The position numbers were made by a program, and so were the translations under genes. DNA of 43,651 nucleotides from contig JAICZH010000016.1 of the NCBI GenBank assembly GCA_025933775.1, positions 1 to 43,651 of the forward strand. Direction: 5' to 3'. Below, piece by piece: positions 3,237 to 43,184 of this stretch (positions are counted from its first letter, which is position 1; each line of letters begins with the position of its first letter). This stretch comes from Chitinophagaceae bacterium (GTDB lineage Bacteria; Bacteroidota; Bacteroidia; Chitinophagales; Chitinophagaceae). The notes beneath the pieces were generated by a model that worked only from the letters and a program-made list of their open reading frames with translations, did not search any database and was not told the origin of the DNA.

Positions 3237-3620
3237 ATGAAAACACAATATTTTTTAAAAACAGCTTTCGTATTTTTTATTGCGTTATCTTTTTCATGTA
3301 GTAAAAGCGGCGGAGATGTAGCAGATACTTTGATACCGGATTTATCAGCAACATGGACAAATACAGCCGATGCTACCGATCAATATTTCTTTTTTAATAA
3401 TACTGCCGGAGCAGCAAACAGTAATTTCGATGGTAATGAAGTGATTAATGGAACGCCAACAAATTCTTTTTCGGGAAGTTATCAAAATTCAAAAATTAAT
3501 TTCACATTTAATAGCGGACCAAAAAACGGAACAAAATATACCGGAAAAATTAATGGAAATTCCGCTAACGCAACAATGACTTTAAATACACCATCTGGCA
3601 CAATTACTTTGCAGAAATAA
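3237..3620 (+). CDS. Small lipoprotein of unknown function
   Basis: This 127-residue protein has a type II signal peptide: MKTQYFLKTAFVFFIALSFSC with the lipidated cysteine at residue 21, followed by SKSGGD, which is a usual start for a Bacteroidota surface lipoprotein. The mature part is rich in N, T, G and S and has alternating polar and hydrophobic strands (SGSYQNSKINFTF, KINGNSANATMTL). That fits a small lipocalin-like or META-like beta barrel, but there is no diagnostic motif. It closes the cluster 1454-3620 and probably shares its transcript. The start follows the previous stop by 11 bases. Confidence 0.7.
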   Translation: MKTQYFLKTAFVFFIALSFSCSKSGGDVADTLIPDLSATWTNTADATDQYFFFNNTAGAANSNFDGNEVINGTPTNSFSGSYQNSKINFTFNSGPKNGTKYTGKINGNSANATMTLNTPSGTITLQK

Positions 3621-3723
3621 TAATATTTATTAAAACTGTAATTAACAAAGAAAAACTTTCATTGAATGGATTAATTCAAAATCCATTATAATTCTTTATT
3701 TTCAACCTTATTAAATTTACCAA

Positions 3724-5436
3724 ATGCCTCACCCGCTTTTTCGCAAAAAAAGTATCACTGCAATTTTAGCCGATGCCAAAGAAGGATTATCAGATGCTAC
3801 ACATTCTTCATCGGGATTAAAAAAAGTTTTAAAAGTAAAAGACCTTGTTGCATTGGGAATTGCAGCTATAGTGGGCGCCGGCATATTTTCCACCATAGGC
3901 AATGCATCGTATCAAGGAGGGCCGGGTGTAATTTTATTATTTATTCTCACTGCTATTTGTTGTGGTTTTTCGGCATTATGTTATGCAGAGTTTGCTTCGC
4001 GAATACCAGTGAGTGGCAGTGCATACACTTATGCTTATGCAGCATTTGGCGAGTTGATCGCATGGATAATCGGTTGGGATCTTTTAATGGAATATGCCAT
4101 CGGAAATATTGCGGTTGCTATTTCATGGAGCCAATATTTTGTAAACCTGCTCGAAGGTTTGCGCATTCATGTTCCCACTTTTTTAACCACAGATTATTTA
4201 AGCGCATCACGAGCATTTGATGCAGCAAATATTGAAATGGCAAAAGGTATTTCATTAACGAGCCTTCCGGAAAATATACAACACGGTTATACTGCATGGT
4301 TGCATGCGCCGCACATGGGCAGTATAAAATTTATTGCAGATTTACCAGCGCTTGCAATTGTATTTTTAATTACATGGTTAGTGTATGTTGGAATTAAAGA
4401 AACAAGAAAAGCAACCAATCTTATGGTTGGCTTAAAGATAATTATCATCATTGCCGTGATAGCAATTGGATTTTTTTATGTAGCGCCTGCCAACTGGAAT
4501 CCTTTTTTGCCAAATGGTTTCAGCGGAATGATGAAAGGCGTGTCGGCTGTTTTTTTTGCCTACATTGGTTTTGACGCCATTTCTACCACCGCCGAAGAAT
4601 GTGAAAATCCTCAAAGAGATTTGCCAAAAGGAATGATTTATTCACTCATCATTTGTACCGTATTGTATATTTTAGTTGCTATTGTTTTAACCGGAATGGT
4701 TTCTTATAAACAATTAATGGTAGGCGATCCGCTGGCTTATGTTTTTAAACAAGTTGGATTGAATAAAATAAGTTATATCATTTCATTCAGCGCTATTATT
4801 GCCACGGCAAGTGTGCTATTGGTTTTTCAACTCGGACAACCGCGAATATGGATGAGCATGAGCCGCGATGGCTTGCTGCCAAAGGTTTTCAGCCGTATTC
4901 ATCCAAAATATAAAACGCCTTCGTTCTCCACAATTGTAACCGGATTGGTGGTAGCCATACCGGCGCTTTTTTTAAACCTCACAGAAGTAACAGACCTCAC
5001 AAGCATCGGAACTTTATTTGCATTTGTATTGGTTTGCGGCGGTGTGTTGTTGCTTCCTCCAAGAGAAAAAGGCGAAGAGCAACCCAAGTTTAAAATTCCT
5101 TACATCAGTTCACAATTTATTGTTCCGGTTCTTTTTATAATTGGCGTAATTATTTTCTGGAAAAATTTTCTCGGGCTTTTTGATTTCAGTGAAGGATGGG
5201 AAGTGTTCAGAGATAAATTGCCATTCTTTCTTTTTGTAATACTTGCTGTGTTATTAACCATTGCATCGTTTATCAAAAAATTATCGCTCATTCCCACGCT
5301 TGGCCTTGCAAGTTGTTTTTATTTAATGACAGAGTTGGGATATACCAACTGGCTGCGATTTTTAATCTGGCTTATAATCGGTCTGGTGATATTTTTCATG
5401 TACAGCCGCCATCACAGCAAGTTGAACAAGCAGTAA
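3724..5436 (+). CDS. APC-family amino acid permease (cationic amino acid transporter type)
   Basis: This 570-residue inner-membrane transporter is mostly hydrophobic, with about 12-14 helices. The first helix carries the APC signature GIAAIVGAGIFSTIG (residues about 45-59), which binds the substrate carboxylate. YAEFASRIPVSGSAYTYAY and the loop FDAISTTAEECENPQRDLP are characteristic of the CAT/YfnA group (TC 2.A.3.3). The likely role is proton-coupled uptake of an amino acid. Which amino acid cannot be read from sequence. A 349-base non-coding stretch follows. The gene appears to be transcribed alone, 103 bases after the lipoprotein gene. Confidence 0.9.
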   Translation: MPHPLFRKKSITAILADAKEGLSDATHSSSGLKKVLKVKDLVALGIAAIVGAGIFSTIGNASYQGGPGVILLFILTAICCGFSALCYAEFASRIPVSGSAYTYAYAAFGELIAWIIGWDLLMEYAIGNIAVAISWSQYFVNLLEGLRIHVPTFLTTDYLSASRAFDAANIEMAKGISLTSLPENIQHGYTAWLHAPHMGSIKFIADLPALAIVFLITWLVYVGIKETRKATNLMVGLKIIIIIAVIAIGFFYVAPANWNPFLPNGFSGMMKGVSAVFFAYIGFDAISTTAEECENPQRDLPKGMIYSLIICTVLYILVAIVLTGMVSYKQLMVGDPLAYVFKQVGLNKISYIISFSAIIATASVLLVFQLGQPRIWMSMSRDGLLPKVFSRIHPKYKTPSFSTIVTGLVVAIPALFLNLTEVTDLTSIGTLFAFVLVCGGVLLLPPREKGEEQPKFKIPYISSQFIVPVLFIIGVIIFWKNFLGLFDFSEGWEVFRDKLPFFLFVILAVLLTIASFIKKLSLIPTLGLASCFYLMTELGYTNWLRFLIWLIIGLVIFFMYSRHHSKLNKQ

Positions 5437-35342: not shown

Positions 35343-36524
35343 TTAAATATTGGATGCTGATATAGCCAGCCATGCCATAATCCCAATTCCGTTTTCAATG
35401 GCTCTTTCATCAATATTAAAAGTAGATGTATGCACACCGGATGTAATATTTTTTTCTTTATTGCCAACGCCGAGTCTGAAAAAGCAAGCAGGTATCTGGT
35501 GTGAATAAAATGCAAAATCTTCAGCGCCCATGCGCATTTCGGTTTCTTCTACATTTTCTGCTCCGGCAAATTCAATTGCATTTCGTATAGCCGTTACCGT
35601 TAGTTGTTCGTGATTAATTACAAACGGGTAACCCACATCAATATTTACATCAATTTGTGCGCCTTGCATAGTGGCAGTATTGTTACAAATATTTTTTATA
35701 AGTTCATGCGCTTTAAACCGCCACTCTTCATTCATTGCTCTGAAAGTGCCCATTAGCTTCACTTCCGAAGGAATTACATTGGTGGCATTACCTCCTTGTA
35801 TTGAGGTAATTGATAACACCGATGGATTAAACGGATCATTCATTCGGCTTAACACTTGTTGCAGATTTACTATTAAATGCGAAGCAGTGAGAATCGTATC
35901 GGGGGTGAGATGTGGCGCGGCAGCATGGCCTCCTTTTCCTTTTATGGTTATATAAATTTCATCAGCGCTTGCCATAACCATGCCGCTGCGAAAACTTAAT
36001 TTTCCAACCGGCAACGAAGGATTTACATGCAATGCAAAAATTGACTGCGGCGCAGGATTTTTTAAAACGCCTTCTTTTATAAGAATGCTTGCGCCGCCGG
36101 GATTTTTTTCTTCACCGGGTTGAAAAATTAATTTTATCGTTCCCGTCCATTCATCTTTTAATTCATTTAAAATTTTTGCTGCACCGAGCAAACAGGTGGT
36201 ATGCACATCATGCCCGCATGCATGCATTATTCCATCGTTCTGCGATTTATATTCCACATCATTCAATTCTTTTATCGGCAATGCATCCATATCTGCGCGC
36301 AGCGCAATAATTTTTTCTTCAGGATTTTTTCCTTTAATGATTGCTACCACACCAGTGGTTGCCATTATTGTAAAATCAATGTTCCAGCTTTTTAATTTTT
36401 GCTGAATGTATTCTGATGTTTTAAATTCATGAAAACTCAATTCAGGATGCGCATGCAGGTAATGGCGCACTTCAATAAATTCACTGGCATACTTCGCAGC
36501 TAAGTCTTTTATGATATTTATCAT
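35343..36524 (-). CDS. M20-family amidohydrolase
   Basis: This 393-residue metal-dependent hydrolase resembles N-acyl amino acid or hippurate hydrolases. Metal-binding motifs are HACGHDVHTTCLLGAAK and FQPGEEKNPGGASILI, with the dimerisation domain starting at YITIKGKGGHAAAPHL and the closing MRMGAEDFAFYSHQIP. The start is taken as the ATG at 36524 (MINIIKDLAAKYASEF); a TTG 21 bases upstream is possible. There is no signal peptide, so it acts in the cytoplasm. Its substrate cannot be told from sequence. The duplicated SPOR gene fragment lies just upstream. Confidence 0.92.
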   Translation of the reverse strand: MINIIKDLAAKYASEFIEVRHYLHAHPELSFHEFKTSEYIQQKLKSWNIDFTIMATTGVVAIIKGKNPEEKIIALRADMDALPIKELNDVEYKSQNDGIMHACGHDVHTTCLLGAAKILNELKDEWTGTIKLIFQPGEEKNPGGASILIKEGVLKNPAPQSIFALHVNPSLPVGKLSFRSGMVMASADEIYITIKGKGGHAAAPHLTPDTILTASHLIVNLQQVLSRMNDPFNPSVLSITSIQGGNATNVIPSEVKLMGTFRAMNEEWRFKAHELIKNICNNTATMQGAQIDVNIDVGYPFVINHEQLTVTAIRNAIEFAGAENVEETEMRMGAEDFAFYSHQIPACFFRLGVGNKEKNITSGVHTSTFNIDERAIENGIGIMAWLAISASNI

Positions 36525-36628
36525 GCTTATCTTTTGTGATTGCAAATTATCTCAAAAGTAAACAGCAACAATCATTACGAGATAAATACCTTTTATGGAT
36601 AAATTATATTTTTTAAATAATCCACAAA

Positions 36629-36703
36629 CTAATTTATATCATCAGGATTAAAATCCTTGTCAGGCTTTACTTCTATGGTTTCAGGAAGATAATAAATGGT
36701 AAA
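36629..36703 (-). pseudogene. Duplicated 3' end of the SPOR-domain gene
   Basis: Read leftward this encodes TIYYLPETIEVKPDKDFNPDDIN and a stop, the same last 23 residues as the intact gene at 37578. Over these 24 codons including the stop there are five base differences, all synonymous and all at third positions. The copy has no start and begins a few bases beyond the vapC stop. It forms one of two direct repeats that bracket vapBC. Confidence 0.9.
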
Positions 36704-36713
36704 AGCGGTTACT

Positions 36714-37115
36714 CTATAAGTACTTTATTTTAAACCCGCTTTCATTTTTCAAAGCCTCAAACTCATCGCCGGTTATTAAAGTAGCTTTTTCTTTAATAGT
36801 TAGTGCTGCAGCAAAAGCATCAGCATAGGAAACAGAATACTTCGCTTTTAGTTTGGCAGTGGCTAACGTAAACTCTAAATCAGCATCAATGATATGAATA
36901 GGGAACTGGCACATGGCTTTCCAGACAAGTTCTGCTTTATTTACACCATCTTTCAGGCAACTCATATAATAAACTTCACCGGCATTTACACAAGTAATAT
37001 ATAATTCATGCTTGTCAGCAGCAGCTTCATTAAGCAGTTGCTCAACTTTTTCGCCGCCTTCTTCATTCCTGAAAAACGCAAGCAAGGCATAGCTGTCTAA
37101 TACAAAATGCGCCAT
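36714..37115 (-). CDS. vapC: VapC-type PIN-domain toxin
   Basis: This 133-residue ribonuclease toxin of a type II toxin-antitoxin system has the PIN acidic residues Asp7 (FVLDSYALLAFF), Glu47 (NAGEVYY), Asp99 (SYADAFAAAL) and Asp117 (ITGDEFE). VapC toxins cleave tRNA or rRNA, and the target of this one is unknown. It starts two bases after the vapB stop, so the two are co-translated. Its stop at 36714 lies 11 bases from the duplicated SPOR gene fragment. Confidence 0.93.
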   Translation of the reverse strand: MAHFVLDSYALLAFFRNEEGGEKVEQLLNEAAADKHELYITCVNAGEVYYMSCLKDGVNKAELVWKAMCQFPIHIIDADLEFTLATAKLKAKYSVSYADAFAAALTIKEKATLITGDEFEALKNESGFKIKYL

Positions 37116-37117
37116 TG

Positions 37118-37393
37118 TTATTTCGTTTTTTTGGAATTAACAGGTAAATGCCATTTTCGTTCTTCCAGTTTCTTCTCTTCTGCCTTCATCTTTTTCATTT
37201 CTTCTTTAAAATTTCCTGTTGATTTCAGTATGCCCCTGAAAGATTTAAAATAATTTTCATTCATTGGACGGATAACAACACCTTTTTCTGTTTCTTCAAA
37301 AATTACTTTAACCCCTGATTTTATTCCATACTTATTCCTGATGCGTTTTGGAATTAATAATTGCCCTTTTACCGTTAACACAGATGTTTCCAT
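37118..37393 (-). CDS. vapB: AbrB/MazE-type antitoxin (VapB)
   Basis: This is a 91-residue antitoxin. Residues 1-45 form the swapped-hairpin AbrB DNA-binding domain (METSVLTVKGQLLIPKRIRN, then GIKSGVKVIFEETEKGVVI). The rest is a charged helix (FKEEMKKMKAEEKKLEERKW) that should wrap around the PIN toxin and neutralise it. As is usual, it should repress its own promoter, and paired repeats flank the -7 box upstream (37420-37447). Confidence 0.92.
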   Translation of the reverse strand: METSVLTVKGQLLIPKRIRNKYGIKSGVKVIFEETEKGVVIRPMNENYFKSFRGILKSTGNFKEEMKKMKAEEKKLEERKWHLPVNSKKTK

Positions 37394-37419
37394 ATTTTAT
37401 TTTTTTATGTAAAAATAAT

Positions 37420-37447
37420 AAAGTATTACAAATATAAAAAGTATTAC
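37420..37447 (-). promoter_or_regulatory. vapBC promoter with flanking repeats, candidate operator
   Basis: Read leftward, TATATTTG (37429-37436) is a perfect -7 box. On the plus strand the 10-mer AAAGTATTAC occurs at 37420-37429 and again at 37438-37447, 18 bases apart, on either side of the box. Such an arrangement would let an AbrB-fold antitoxin cover the promoter. Confidence 0.5.
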
Positions 37448-37577
37448 TTCATAAAATTTAGCCCCTTTTTTTTGAAAAAAATTTAGGAGGGGACAAGTAA
37501 AGGCAATGCGCCGCATCGGGCATTTCTTGAAAACGAAAGTCTGCTTCAAAAATATGTACCAGGGAAATAGTTTGTTT

Positions 37578-38033
37578 CTAATTTATGTCGTCAGGATTAA
37601 AATCCTTATCAGGCTTTACTTCTATAGTTTCGGGAAGATAATAAATGGTAGCGCCGTTAAGCAATTTACTAATCTCTTTGCGGTACGGCTCGGCTTCTTC
37701 TTTTGTTTTAAAATTGCCGAATTTTATTTTAATGTAAGGATTGGCATACCACATATATGTTTTTTGTTCAGGATAATTTTGTAACAACTCGCCTCTTACC
37801 TTCATAGCATAAGCGCGGTCATAAGTATTTAAGATCATCAGGCGATAACCCTTTCCAATTCTTGACTCGGCTTTTAAAATGGCTGTATTAATATCGGCCT
37901 CTCTTCTTGCTAAAATTTCCATCCGGTAATCTTGGTGAACCGTAATTTTATTTTGCGATAAACTATCCGTAAGCTGCGCAAATGAAGAAAAACTTATTAA
38001 TAAAATAAAAAATAAAATGAATACGCGTTTCAT
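37578..38033 (-). CDS. SPOR-domain secreted protein
   Basis: The start is taken at the ATG 38033, which gives the signal peptide MKRVFILFFILLISFSSFAQ; an ATG 36 bases upstream would place extra residues before it. The mature part ends in a SPOR-like repeat: GYRLMILNTYDRAYAMKVRG, then TYMWYANPYIKIKFGNFKTK and EEAEPYRKEISKLLNGATIYY. SPOR domains bind peptidoglycan bare of side chains, often at division sites. This is a one-domain periplasmic protein of 151 residues. Its last 24 codons are repeated at 36629 on the far side of vapBC. Confidence 0.85.
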   Translation of the reverse strand: MKRVFILFFILLISFSSFAQLTDSLSQNKITVHQDYRMEILARREADINTAILKAESRIGKGYRLMILNTYDRAYAMKVRGELLQNYPEQKTYMWYANPYIKIKFGNFKTKEEAEPYRKEISKLLNGATIYYLPETIEVKPDKDFNPDDIN

Positions 38034-38174: not shown

Positions 38175-38834
38175 TTATTTCATACTTTCTTTTACAATCT
38201 GCACACTGTTGCTGCAACCAAGCCTGTCTGCTCCTGCTTCAATTAATTCTTTGGCAAATTGATAAGTTTTAATTCCGCCACTGGCTTTTATTTTTATTGC
38301 CTCAGCGGCGTGCGCTCTTATTAATTTTACCGCATGAACCGTTGCTCCTTTTTCAGCATAACCTGTTGACGTTTTAATATAATCAACTCCGGCAGCTCCA
38401 TAAATATCGCAGCATTTTATAATTTCATCATCGGTTAAAATACCGCTTTCAATAATCACTTTAATAATTTTGTTTCTATTTTTTATAATCGGTATTATAG
38501 TGTTGATTTCATTGGCAATAAAATTCCAGTCATTATTTTTTATTGCAGAAATATTTATCACCATATCCAGCTCATCAGCTTCATCCACCATTGCTAAAAC
38601 AATCTCTGCAACTTTGGCTTCGATTGCGCTGTAGCCTAAAGGGAAACCAATAACAGCGGCGGTTTTAATGGAAGTATTCAACAAAATTTCTTTTACTTTT
38701 TTTATATATAAAGGAGGAATACAAACTGCCGCAAATTTATATTCTATCGCTTCTTTGCATAGGTTTTCAATCTGCTGCACAGTTGCATCAGGTTTTAAGA
38801 AAGTATGATCTATATAAGAATTTATTGGCAACAT
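38175..38834 (-). CDS. deoC: Deoxyribose-phosphate aldolase
   Basis: This 219-residue TIM-barrel aldolase cleaves 2-deoxyribose-5-phosphate to glyceraldehyde-3-phosphate and acetaldehyde. The Schiff-base lysine is in DYIKTSTGYAEKGATVHAV. IDHTFLKPDATVQQIENLC, VIGFPLGYSAIEAKVAEI and KVIIESGILTDDEI are further hallmarks, and the C-terminal KASGGIKTYQFAKELIEAGA is complete. It serves salvage of deoxynucleosides. It diverges from the GH9-CE4 gene. Confidence 0.96.
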   Translation of the reverse strand: MLPINSYIDHTFLKPDATVQQIENLCKEAIEYKFAAVCIPPLYIKKVKEILLNTSIKTAAVIGFPLGYSAIEAKVAEIVLAMVDEADELDMVINISAIKNNDWNFIANEINTIIPIIKNRNKIIKVIIESGILTDDEIIKCCDIYGAAGVDYIKTSTGYAEKGATVHAVKLIRAHAAEAIKIKASGGIKTYQFAKELIEAGADRLGCSNSVQIVKESMK

Positions 38835-42687: not shown

Positions 42688-42921
42688 ATGAATAGCGAAA
42701 TAAAAAATGAGTTGCATAAACTAATTGATAATTGTGATAACGAATTGTTGTTATCAGAAGCCAGGTCTTTACTTGAATCAAAAGAAATAAAAGATTGGTG
42801 GGATGAATTGACTGATGAAGATAAAAACCTTGTTTTGGAATCTGAAGCAGAATATGAAAAAGGAAATTTTATTTCACATGAGAAATTAATGCAGCAATTC
42901 GAAACATGGAAAAAGAAATAG
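42688..42921 (+). CDS. Antitoxin of a ParDE/RelBE-type module
   Basis: This 77-residue, mostly helical and acidic protein (ELHKLIDNCDNELLLSEARSLL, then DWWDELTDEDKNLVLESEAEYE) closes with an amphipathic helix HEKLMQQFETWKKK. The helix pattern and its place directly before a ParE-like toxin identify it as the cognate antitoxin; the sequence itself is not family-diagnostic. Its last 16 bases overlap the toxin gene in another frame. Confidence 0.8.
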   Translation: MNSEIKNELHKLIDNCDNELLLSEARSLLESKEIKDWWDELTDEDKNLVLESEAEYEKGNFISHEKLMQQFETWKKK

Positions 42922-43184
42922 TATGGACTGCGACTGCTCAAAATGAGTTTCGGGATATATTGTTTTATTTAGAAAGCAATTGGACATCAGAAGTTTTAAG
43001 TACATTTCAGCGTAAACTGGAATTAAAAATTAAACTGCTGCAAAAGCAACCCAACGTTGGTTACAAAAGCTCAAAGTATTCCCGTTTTAGGCAAACATTA
43101 ATTGGCCGTCATTATAAATTAATTTACTCAATAAAAAGAAACCACATTGTTATTCTGCGGATTAAGCATACAAGAATGAAGTAG
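42906..43184 (+). CDS. ParE/RelE-superfamily toxin
   Basis: This 92-residue toxin of the RelE/ParE fold has an N-terminal helix pair EIVWTATAQNEFRDILFYLES, KLELKIKLLQKQPNVGYKSS, and the strand pair FRQTLIGRHYKLIYSIKRN followed by HIVILRIKHTR. That RxxLIGRHYKLIYSI core is typical of ParE-like toxins. Relatives poison gyrase or cleave mRNA, and the target of this one is not known. The ATG lies inside the antitoxin gene, so it is translationally coupled. Confidence 0.9.
   Translation: MEKEIVWTATAQNEFRDILFYLESNWTSEVLSTFQRKLELKIKLLQKQPNVGYKSSKYSRFRQTLIGRHYKLIYSIKRNHIVILRIKHTRMK

What the first reader, a model, noticed from the sequence alone, without database searches (positions are those of the whole stretch)
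36629..37650. VapBC sits between two copies of the 3' end of a SPOR-domain gene
The last 24 codons of the SPOR gene (37578-37649) recur as a direct repeat at 36629-36700, on the other side of vapBC. The encoded residues are identical and the five base differences are all synonymous third-position changes. A dead copy would gather random changes, so both ends were under selection before they met. That fits an element that carried a replacement gene end, as integrative elements do at attachment sites, or a swap with a related strain. Yet the element is under 1 kb and holds only vapBC, with no integrase.
Basis: partly seen in the sequence, partly recalled or inferred. Interest (0 to 1): 0.78.

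Follow-up and report, generated by a model that had tools for sequence, protein, structure and literature searches.

The report
Toxin-antitoxin modules bracketed by gene-end repeats
A small bacterial toxin-antitoxin gene pair sits between two slightly different copies of the end of a neighbouring gene, and many other toxin-antitoxin pairs show a similar scar, which suggests that such pairs can enter chromosomes attached to a piece of a relative's gene, without any enzyme of their own for moving.

Summary
In detail: 36629-36701 repeats 37578-37650 (73 nt, 93%, E=2e-24), and all five differences are synonymous. Relatives give the empty site: M20 lies downstream of SPOR in 14 of 18 same-genus loci and none of the 18 has vapBC. 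SPOR is single-copy in the 52 relatives where it was found.

The window is one case of a recurrent pattern. Diverged direct repeats bracket 26 of 136 toxin-antitoxin loci (VapC 8/46, ParE 15/69, HigB 3/21) and 2 of 99 control loci (GNAT, glyoxalase); Fisher p=2.5e-5. In 14 of the 26, by my reading, the repeat is the end of an ordinary gene, whole at one place and cut short at the other. Differences between copies lean to synonymous sites (81 of 136 changed codons), so at least some pairs look like two alleles rather than a decayed duplicate; tests of which copy is native were mixed.

Best explanation: homology-facilitated illegitimate recombination with DNA from a relative. My searches found no such report for toxin-antitoxin modules; restriction-modification 'long target duplication' is the nearest known case.

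The parts
37578..38033 (-). Intact SPOR-domain gene (151 codons from the ATG); its 3' end is the second repeat copy
37578..37650 (-). Repeat copy 2: last 24 codons of the intact gene, inferred to be the incoming (donor) gene end
37450..37577 (.). Spacer between the SPOR stop and the vapBC operator; almost all of it has no match at the other vapBC loci
37394..37449 (-). Region upstream of vapB with GTAATACTTT repeats (operator, inferred); similarity to other vapBC loci starts about here
37118..37393 (-). vapB, MazE-type antitoxin
36714..37115 (-). vapC, PIN-domain toxin; D7, D99 and D117 are invariant in a 9-sequence alignment and position 47 is E or D (that these are catalytic is recalled)
36702..36713 (.). 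Inferred illegitimate junction between the vapC stop and the SPOR remnant (a protein alignment carries the remnant to 36712)
36629..36701 (-). Repeat copy 1: truncated SPOR 3' end, inferred to be the displaced native gene end
36546..36628 (.). Intergenic stretch between the remnant and the M20 gene (native flank by position)
35343..36545 (-). M20 peptidase gene, the usual neighbour of SPOR in relatives
38175..38834 (-). deoC, the usual neighbour on the other side

Best explanation
A vapBC pair that lay beside the SPOR gene of a related strain or species entered this genome on a DNA fragment. The gene stayed whole with the donor's 3' end, and the resident 3' end was left as a remnant behind vapC. 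This is homology-facilitated illegitimate recombination (HFIR). The same event at other genes would explain why TA modules of several families are bracketed by diverged gene ends. Because the copies differ, excision by recombination between them should be slow, and loss of the module should be punished by the toxin, so the scars persist. Shown: the repeats, the empty site, recurrence and enrichment at TA modules, gene-end anatomy at 14 loci, excess of synonymous divergence. Inferred: the recombination route, the donor, which copy is native, toxin activity and its role in retention.
For: Empty site in congeners and no second SPOR copy in relatives. Enrichment: 26 of 136 TA loci against 2 of 99 control loci, p=2.5e-5; under the looser first criteria 9 of 49 VapC and 12 of 40 ParE loci against 5.6% and 5.2% of shifted placements in the same regions. 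The cut edge of the remnant faces the module and the gene is whole on the other side at the window, L060, L077, L082, L083, L109, L111, L182 and L192. Over 14 coding pairs (13 loci) differences fall 39/25/94 on codon positions 1/2/3: p=1.5e-11 against equal thirds, 3.4e-4 against 0.457, my estimate for a freely drifting remnant. Remnants of the window and of nadB (remnant 1) are closer than the intact end to most or all congeners tested. Two modules in series at one gene end (L182), each followed by a copy of that end. No termini shared with other vapBC copies; no VapC relative in phage records and only 7 distant ones (under 60%) in 72,556 plasmid records. A ComEC homologue is present.
Against: No donor genome with SPOR next to vapBC was found. 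Of five remnants compared with congeners, three (nadB remnant 2, L182 remnant 1, asparaginase L262) score lower than the intact end against every congener tested, as a decaying copy would. queA, clp, urocanase, asparaginase and nadB remnant 2 show little or no synonymous excess. In L069 the whole gene lies upstream and a decayed 5' copy downstream, which needs a variant of the event. 12 of the 26 bracketed loci have repeats that I could not tie to a gene end (and my reading). One pair, L265, is identical over 55 nt, as target duplication predicts. Junction microhomology was not tested. HFIR is rare in the laboratory (stated in PMC5361080), so frequent scars need selection for the cargo.
Confidence: 0.55

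Rival explanations
1. Insertion with long target duplication, as described for restriction-modification systems: the module inserts and duplicates some 50-200 bp of target; the copies are identical at birth and then drift apart.
For: The same topology is described for R-M systems with duplications of the order of 100 bp (passages of PMC3874152). Some TA copies are near identical: L265 100% over 55 nt, L192 95.5%. Three of five remnants compared are farther from congeners than the intact end.
Against: Identity is 79-100%, median 87.5%, and only 1 of 26 is identical. The third-position excess holds against a neutral-drift null (p=3.4e-4). At the window, L060, L082, L083, L111 and L182 the module-facing edge of the intact copy falls at the stop or start codon, which target duplication does not predict.
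Confidence: 0.23
2. An integrase-free mobile element: a TA module plus a gene end leaves as a circle by RecA recombination between its repeats and enters the same gene in another strain by a single crossover.
For: The end product is the same, and bracketing repeats would allow excision that leaves the gene whole.
Against: No circle and no same-species empty site was seen; modules shared at one gene between species were not searched for.
Confidence: 0.12
3. Tandem duplication of the whole SPOR gene, with vapBC landing between the copies and the second copy eroding.
For: A gene fragment beside a whole gene is what partial loss of a duplicate leaves; at the ASCH locus (L069) the second copy is decayed.
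Against: SPOR is single in the 52 relatives where it was found; the remnant starts by the vapC stop and shows no decay in 24 codons.
Confidence: 0.05
4. Assembly artefact that joins two strains in a metagenome bin.
For: The window genome has 197 contigs and 2.4% contamination, and nearly all genome-contig hits are metagenome bins.
Against: The pattern recurs in independent assemblies, among them a 3.1 Mb contig (L082) and genomes of about 20-60 contigs (G055, G179), and is rare at control genes. The longest exact match between the window copies is 18 nt, short for an assembly overlap.
Confidence: 0.03

Closest known systems
Insertion of restriction-modification systems with long target duplication (Nobusato 2000 and Furuta 2010, not held; seen only as described in passages of PMC3874152)
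   Same: An addictive gene pair without a transposase, flanked by direct repeats of the order of 100 bp
   Different: Here toxin-antitoxin modules; many repeats are gene ends whose differences lean to synonymous sites, so they look more like two alleles than one duplicated target
Homology-facilitated illegitimate recombination (PMC3240628, start of abstract in a search listing; original laboratory papers seen only as references in PMC5361080)
   Same: One end homologous, the other illegitimate; foreign DNA added beside a shared gene
   Different: Laboratory events; here natural footprints at many loci with the displaced gene end preserved
T6SS effector-immunity module displacement in Vibrio cholerae (PMC5361080, passages)
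   Same: A toxin-immunity module inserted beside a conserved anchor by proposed HFIR, leaving remnants of the old state downstream
   Different: There the remnants are old immunity genes in dedicated clusters; here they are ends of ordinary genes at scattered sites
Integrative elements that replace the 3' end of their target gene at att sites (recalled)
   Same: Whole gene with a new end on one side, old end on the other
   Different: No integrase, no fixed target gene, insert under 1 kb, both 5' and 3' ends used
Chromosomal type II VapBC modules
   Same: PIN toxin and MazE-type antitoxin in a tight operon
   Different: Ordinary as a TA module; only its flanks are unusual

Membership tests
VapBC type II toxin-antitoxin | PIN-domain toxin gene directly downstream of a small antitoxin gene | tested here: met
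   PF01850 7.6e-14 and PF04014 6.1e-7; genes 2 bp apart
VapBC type II toxin-antitoxin | Toxicity and neutralisation | not testable with these tools
   needs an experiment
Product of homology-facilitated illegitimate recombination | One junction inside a gene shared by donor and recipient, with donor alleles on one side | tested here: inconclusive
   Copies differ with a synonymous excess, as two alleles would; the crossover is not visible and polarity against congeners is mixed
Product of homology-facilitated illegitimate recombination | Other junction without homology, often with microhomology | tested here: inconclusive
   The ungapped repeat ends 12 nt after the vapC stop; microhomology not tested because donor sequence is lacking
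Product of homology-facilitated illegitimate recombination | A donor with the module beside the same gene | tested here: inconclusive
   None among 18 same-genus SPOR loci; in the five congeners with a VapC relative it is on another contig than SPOR; the five more distant genomes with VapC were not searched for SPOR
Insertion with long target duplication | Flanking copies identical at insertion, later differences neutral in the remnant | tested here: inconclusive
   Pooled third-position excess rejects it (p=3.4e-4 against my estimated null), but L265 is identical and three of five remnants look decayed
Integrase-borne integrative element | Integrase gene | tested here: not met
   Only vapBC lies between the repeats
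Transposon or cassette | Termini shared by independent copies | tested here: not met
   Similarity of the window element to the other vapBC loci ends near the operator and at the vapC stop

The most novel reading that the evidence does not exclude
Small toxin-antitoxin modules form a class of integrase-free mobile genes that travel by borrowing conserved gene ends: they hitch-hike on a stretch of a relative's gene, insert beside it, keep the host gene whole, and use addiction to survive loss. The scar then records who donated them. Perhaps a fifth of chromosomal TA modules in this group carry such a scar, and serial insertions at one gene end build TA arrays (L182, L184).
Probability: 0.3. Interest if true: 0.82.

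Novelty: new variant of a known kind. Interest (0 to 1): 0.63.

Why it matters
How chromosomal toxin-antitoxin modules without transposase or integrase spread is a long-standing open question. If the scar is general, each bracketed module gives the insertion site, the displaced allele and a piece of the donor's gene, so donor, age and route could be read from sequence. It would also be a natural, many-locus record of homology-facilitated illegitimate recombination, otherwise known mostly from the laboratory, and would bring TA modules, restriction-modification systems and T6SS effector-immunity pairs under one mode of spread for addictive gene pairs.

Tried and rejected
Tandem duplication of SPOR: disfavoured, no second copy in 52 relatives. 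Phage or plasmid vehicle: no VapC relative in 50,697 phage records and seven distant haloarchaeal ones among 72,556 plasmid records, at E<=1e-5. Shared element termini: none seen. tRNA at L074: ARAGORN finds none, the contig ends there; I read a T-arm by eye. SPOR 3' end as an insertion hot spot: L014 and L021 have longer SPOR-M20 gaps, but neither VapB nor VapC matched there; ORFs were listed for L014 only. L062, L134 and L194 were bracketed but lie in repeat arrays and were left out of the numerator. Interspersed repeats at L072, L093 and L104 are another thing.

How the count was made: loci were dropped if they had under 400 nt upstream or 300 nt downstream of the target, or a target identical to another (VapC 49 to 46, ParE 70 to 69, HigB 22 to 21, glyoxalase 30 to 29, GNAT 70 kept). 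Pairs had to be at least 40 nt, E<=1e-5, spacing <=2500. These criteria were set after looser scans of the VapC, ParE and GNAT sets had been seen; HigB and glyoxalase were first scanned there. The window is one of the 8 VapC cases. The 15 ParE cases lie in 10 genomes. GNAT positions in the 40 long regions were set at 3501-3800 from how the regions were cut, and targets in the 30-locus sets mostly from the standard 1500-base flank. The three GNAT hits of the looser scans all lie in one genome, G028. GNAT regions had 1.4% bracketed shifted placements.

Full report
The last 24 codons of the SPOR gene (37578-37650, minus strand) recur at 36629-36701 with 68 of 73 identical bases; blastn of the window against itself gives E=2.1e-24 and no other direct repeat at E<=1e-4 with spacing under 6 kb. 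All five differences are synonymous third-position pyrimidine transitions. Between the copies lie vapB and vapC, in the same orientation. The remnant starts within a few bases of the vapC stop.

Relatives show the ancestral order. I searched 59 genomes (G000 and 58 relatives) with the SPOR protein; 53 have a match at E<=0.001, single in each except the window's own genome, whose second match is the remnant. Among the 18 same-genus loci fetched, 14 have M20 downstream of SPOR; L006-L009 do not (L006 shows only 368 nt downstream); none of the 18 has a VapB or VapC match. VapC relatives at E<=1e-8 are in 11 of 246 genomes including G000. In the five congeners among them VapC is on another contig than SPOR; the five more distant genomes were not searched for SPOR. 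The window's genome has one VapC of this kind. So vapBC is private to this genome at this site among those seen, and simple SPOR duplication is not supported.

The same scar occurs elsewhere. The flanks of ten relatives' vapC genes showed two further cases: a 211-nt repeat of the start of vsr (L048 = L077) and a 56-nt non-coding repeat (L047 = L073). A scan of genome contigs with the VapC alignment gave 48 loci. Repeats bracket vapBC at L060 (3' end of a TonB-receptor-like gene), L069 (ASCH gene), L073, L074 (what reads as a tRNA 3' end with a terminator), L077 (vsr), L082 (queA; Chloroflexi by record title) and L083 (clp; Verrucomicrobia by record title), besides the repeat-rich L062. With the window this is 9 of 49, against a mean of 5.6% for shifted placements in the same loci.

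It is not special to VapBC. For ParE toxins 6 of 30 and then 12 of 40 loci were bracketed, against 1 of 30 and 2 of 40 for GNAT acetyltransferases; shifted placements gave 5.2% in the 40 ParE regions and 1.4% in the 40 GNAT regions. One script with fixed criteria over all sets gave VapC 8/46, ParE 15/69 and HigB 3/21, together 26/136, against GNAT 1/70 and glyoxalase 1/29, together 2/99 (Fisher p=2.5e-5; three hits in repeat arrays, one VapC and two ParE, left out). Those criteria were set after the looser scans had been seen.

Gene ends. By my reading 14 of the 26 are ends of a gene: the window, L060, L069, L074, L077, L082, L083, L109 (Aconitase_C), L111 (urocanase), L182 (DUF2279), L184 (FAD_binding_2 with Succ_DH_flav_C; the name nadB is mine), L192 (Fe-S_biosyn; remnant directly behind the parE stop), L262 (asparaginase) and L265 (zinc dehydrogenase). 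L262 and L265 rest on the automatic classification. At L184 both flanking copies are remnants and the whole gene lies further upstream. The other 12 are non-coding or unresolved.

L182 is instructive: the 322-codon gene is whole; then come a ParE toxin gene (I did not identify its antitoxin), a 110-nt copy of the gene's end, a nucleotidyltransferase pair (Polbeta/NTP_transf_2 with NTase_sub_bind), and a second, 60-nt copy of the same end identical to the gene. At L184 two remnants of the nadB end flank a ParE-type module. These look like serial insertions at one gene end.

Alleles or duplicates? Over 14 coding pairs at 13 loci the differences fall 39/25/94 on codon positions 1/2/3, and 81 of 136 changed codons are synonymous. 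That rejects equal thirds (p=1.5e-11) and also 0.457 at position 3, my estimate for a freely drifting remnant beside a constrained gene (p=3.4e-4). The signal is strong in the window (5/5), L060 (11/13), L182 (6/7), L109 (4/5) and nadB remnant 1 (6/8); it is weak or absent in queA (3/7), clp (10/24), urocanase (2/4), asparaginase (9/17) and nadB remnant 2 (7/15). In the window, read by eye against the two closest relatives, three of four polarisable changes are on the intact end and one on the remnant; a remnant drifting since a duplication should have about nine (my arithmetic).

Which copy is native? By alignment score against congeners, the window's remnant beats the intact end in four of six, ties in one and loses in one (closest relative: 63 v 61 of 74); nadB remnant 1 beats it in four of four. 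Against this, nadB remnant 2 loses in four of four, L182 remnant 1 in three of three and asparaginase in three of three. Two of five therefore look like displaced native ends, and three are what an older or decaying copy would give.

Mechanism. The typical product has a whole gene on one side of the module and a cut-short end of the same gene on the other. A fragment carrying a donor's gene and its neighbouring TA module gives this if it recombines homologously inside the gene and is joined without homology at the other end. This is HFIR, reported for competent bacteria and for conjugation in E. coli (PMC3240628, start of abstract in the listing) and proposed for T6SS effector-immunity modules (PMC5361080, passages). 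Similarity of the window element to other vapBC loci runs only from about the operator to the vapC stop, so nothing points to an enzyme that recognises ends. That addiction keeps the scars is an inference. The ComEC homologue in this genome is only permissive, since 10 of 14 control genomes have one.

Comparison with print. Mruk and Kobayashi (PMC3874152, passages) state that some R-M systems insert with long and variable target duplications of the order of 100 bp; Furuta 2010 is not held and Nobusato 2000 was seen only as a reference. Searches for TA with target duplication, homology-facilitated recombination, or flanking direct repeats listed no report of this for TA modules; they cover open-licence papers only, and I read passages of PMC3874152, PMC2654758, PMC3031569 and PMC5361080 and otherwise only listings. 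I call it a new variant of a known kind.

Limits. The control families are partly core genes, and TA modules lie in variable regions; the within-region shifts are the fairer yardstick and leave a three- to sixfold excess. Loci within one genome are not independent (15 ParE cases in 10 genomes). No donor was found. Toxin activity is untested.

Noticed in passing
window 42688-43184: A second toxin-antitoxin-like pair (ParE toxin PF05016 at 42906-43184 with a small upstream gene without a Pfam hit); no bracketing repeat was found around it.
   Followed up: partly
L182 3065-4767: Two different modules (ParE toxin; nucleotidyltransferase pair) in series behind one gene, each followed by its own copy of that gene's end.
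   Followed up: partly
window 36546-36628; same-genus loci L004, L005, L010, L012, L017-L021: These relatives have a hairpin with a T-run (AAGAGTTTC...GAAACTCTTTTT or close) behind SPOR; I do not see it behind either SPOR copy in the window (read by eye).
   Followed up: no
L072, L093, L104: Interspersed repeats flank RelE-like, ATPase and other small genes; a different repeat type that can mimic bracketing.
   Followed up: no
L077 and L193: vsr genes or fragments lie beside toxin-antitoxin modules of two families in two genomes of the genus (L077 by Pfam; L193 read by eye); vsr itself may be mobile.
   Followed up: no
window 36545: The M20 gene is listed from a TTG; most relatives align only from about residue 12 on, so the real start may lie further in.
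   Followed up: no
genome G028 (L146, L208, L223): All three GNAT control hits of the looser scans lie in this one genome, which may hold its own interspersed repeat.
   Followed up: no
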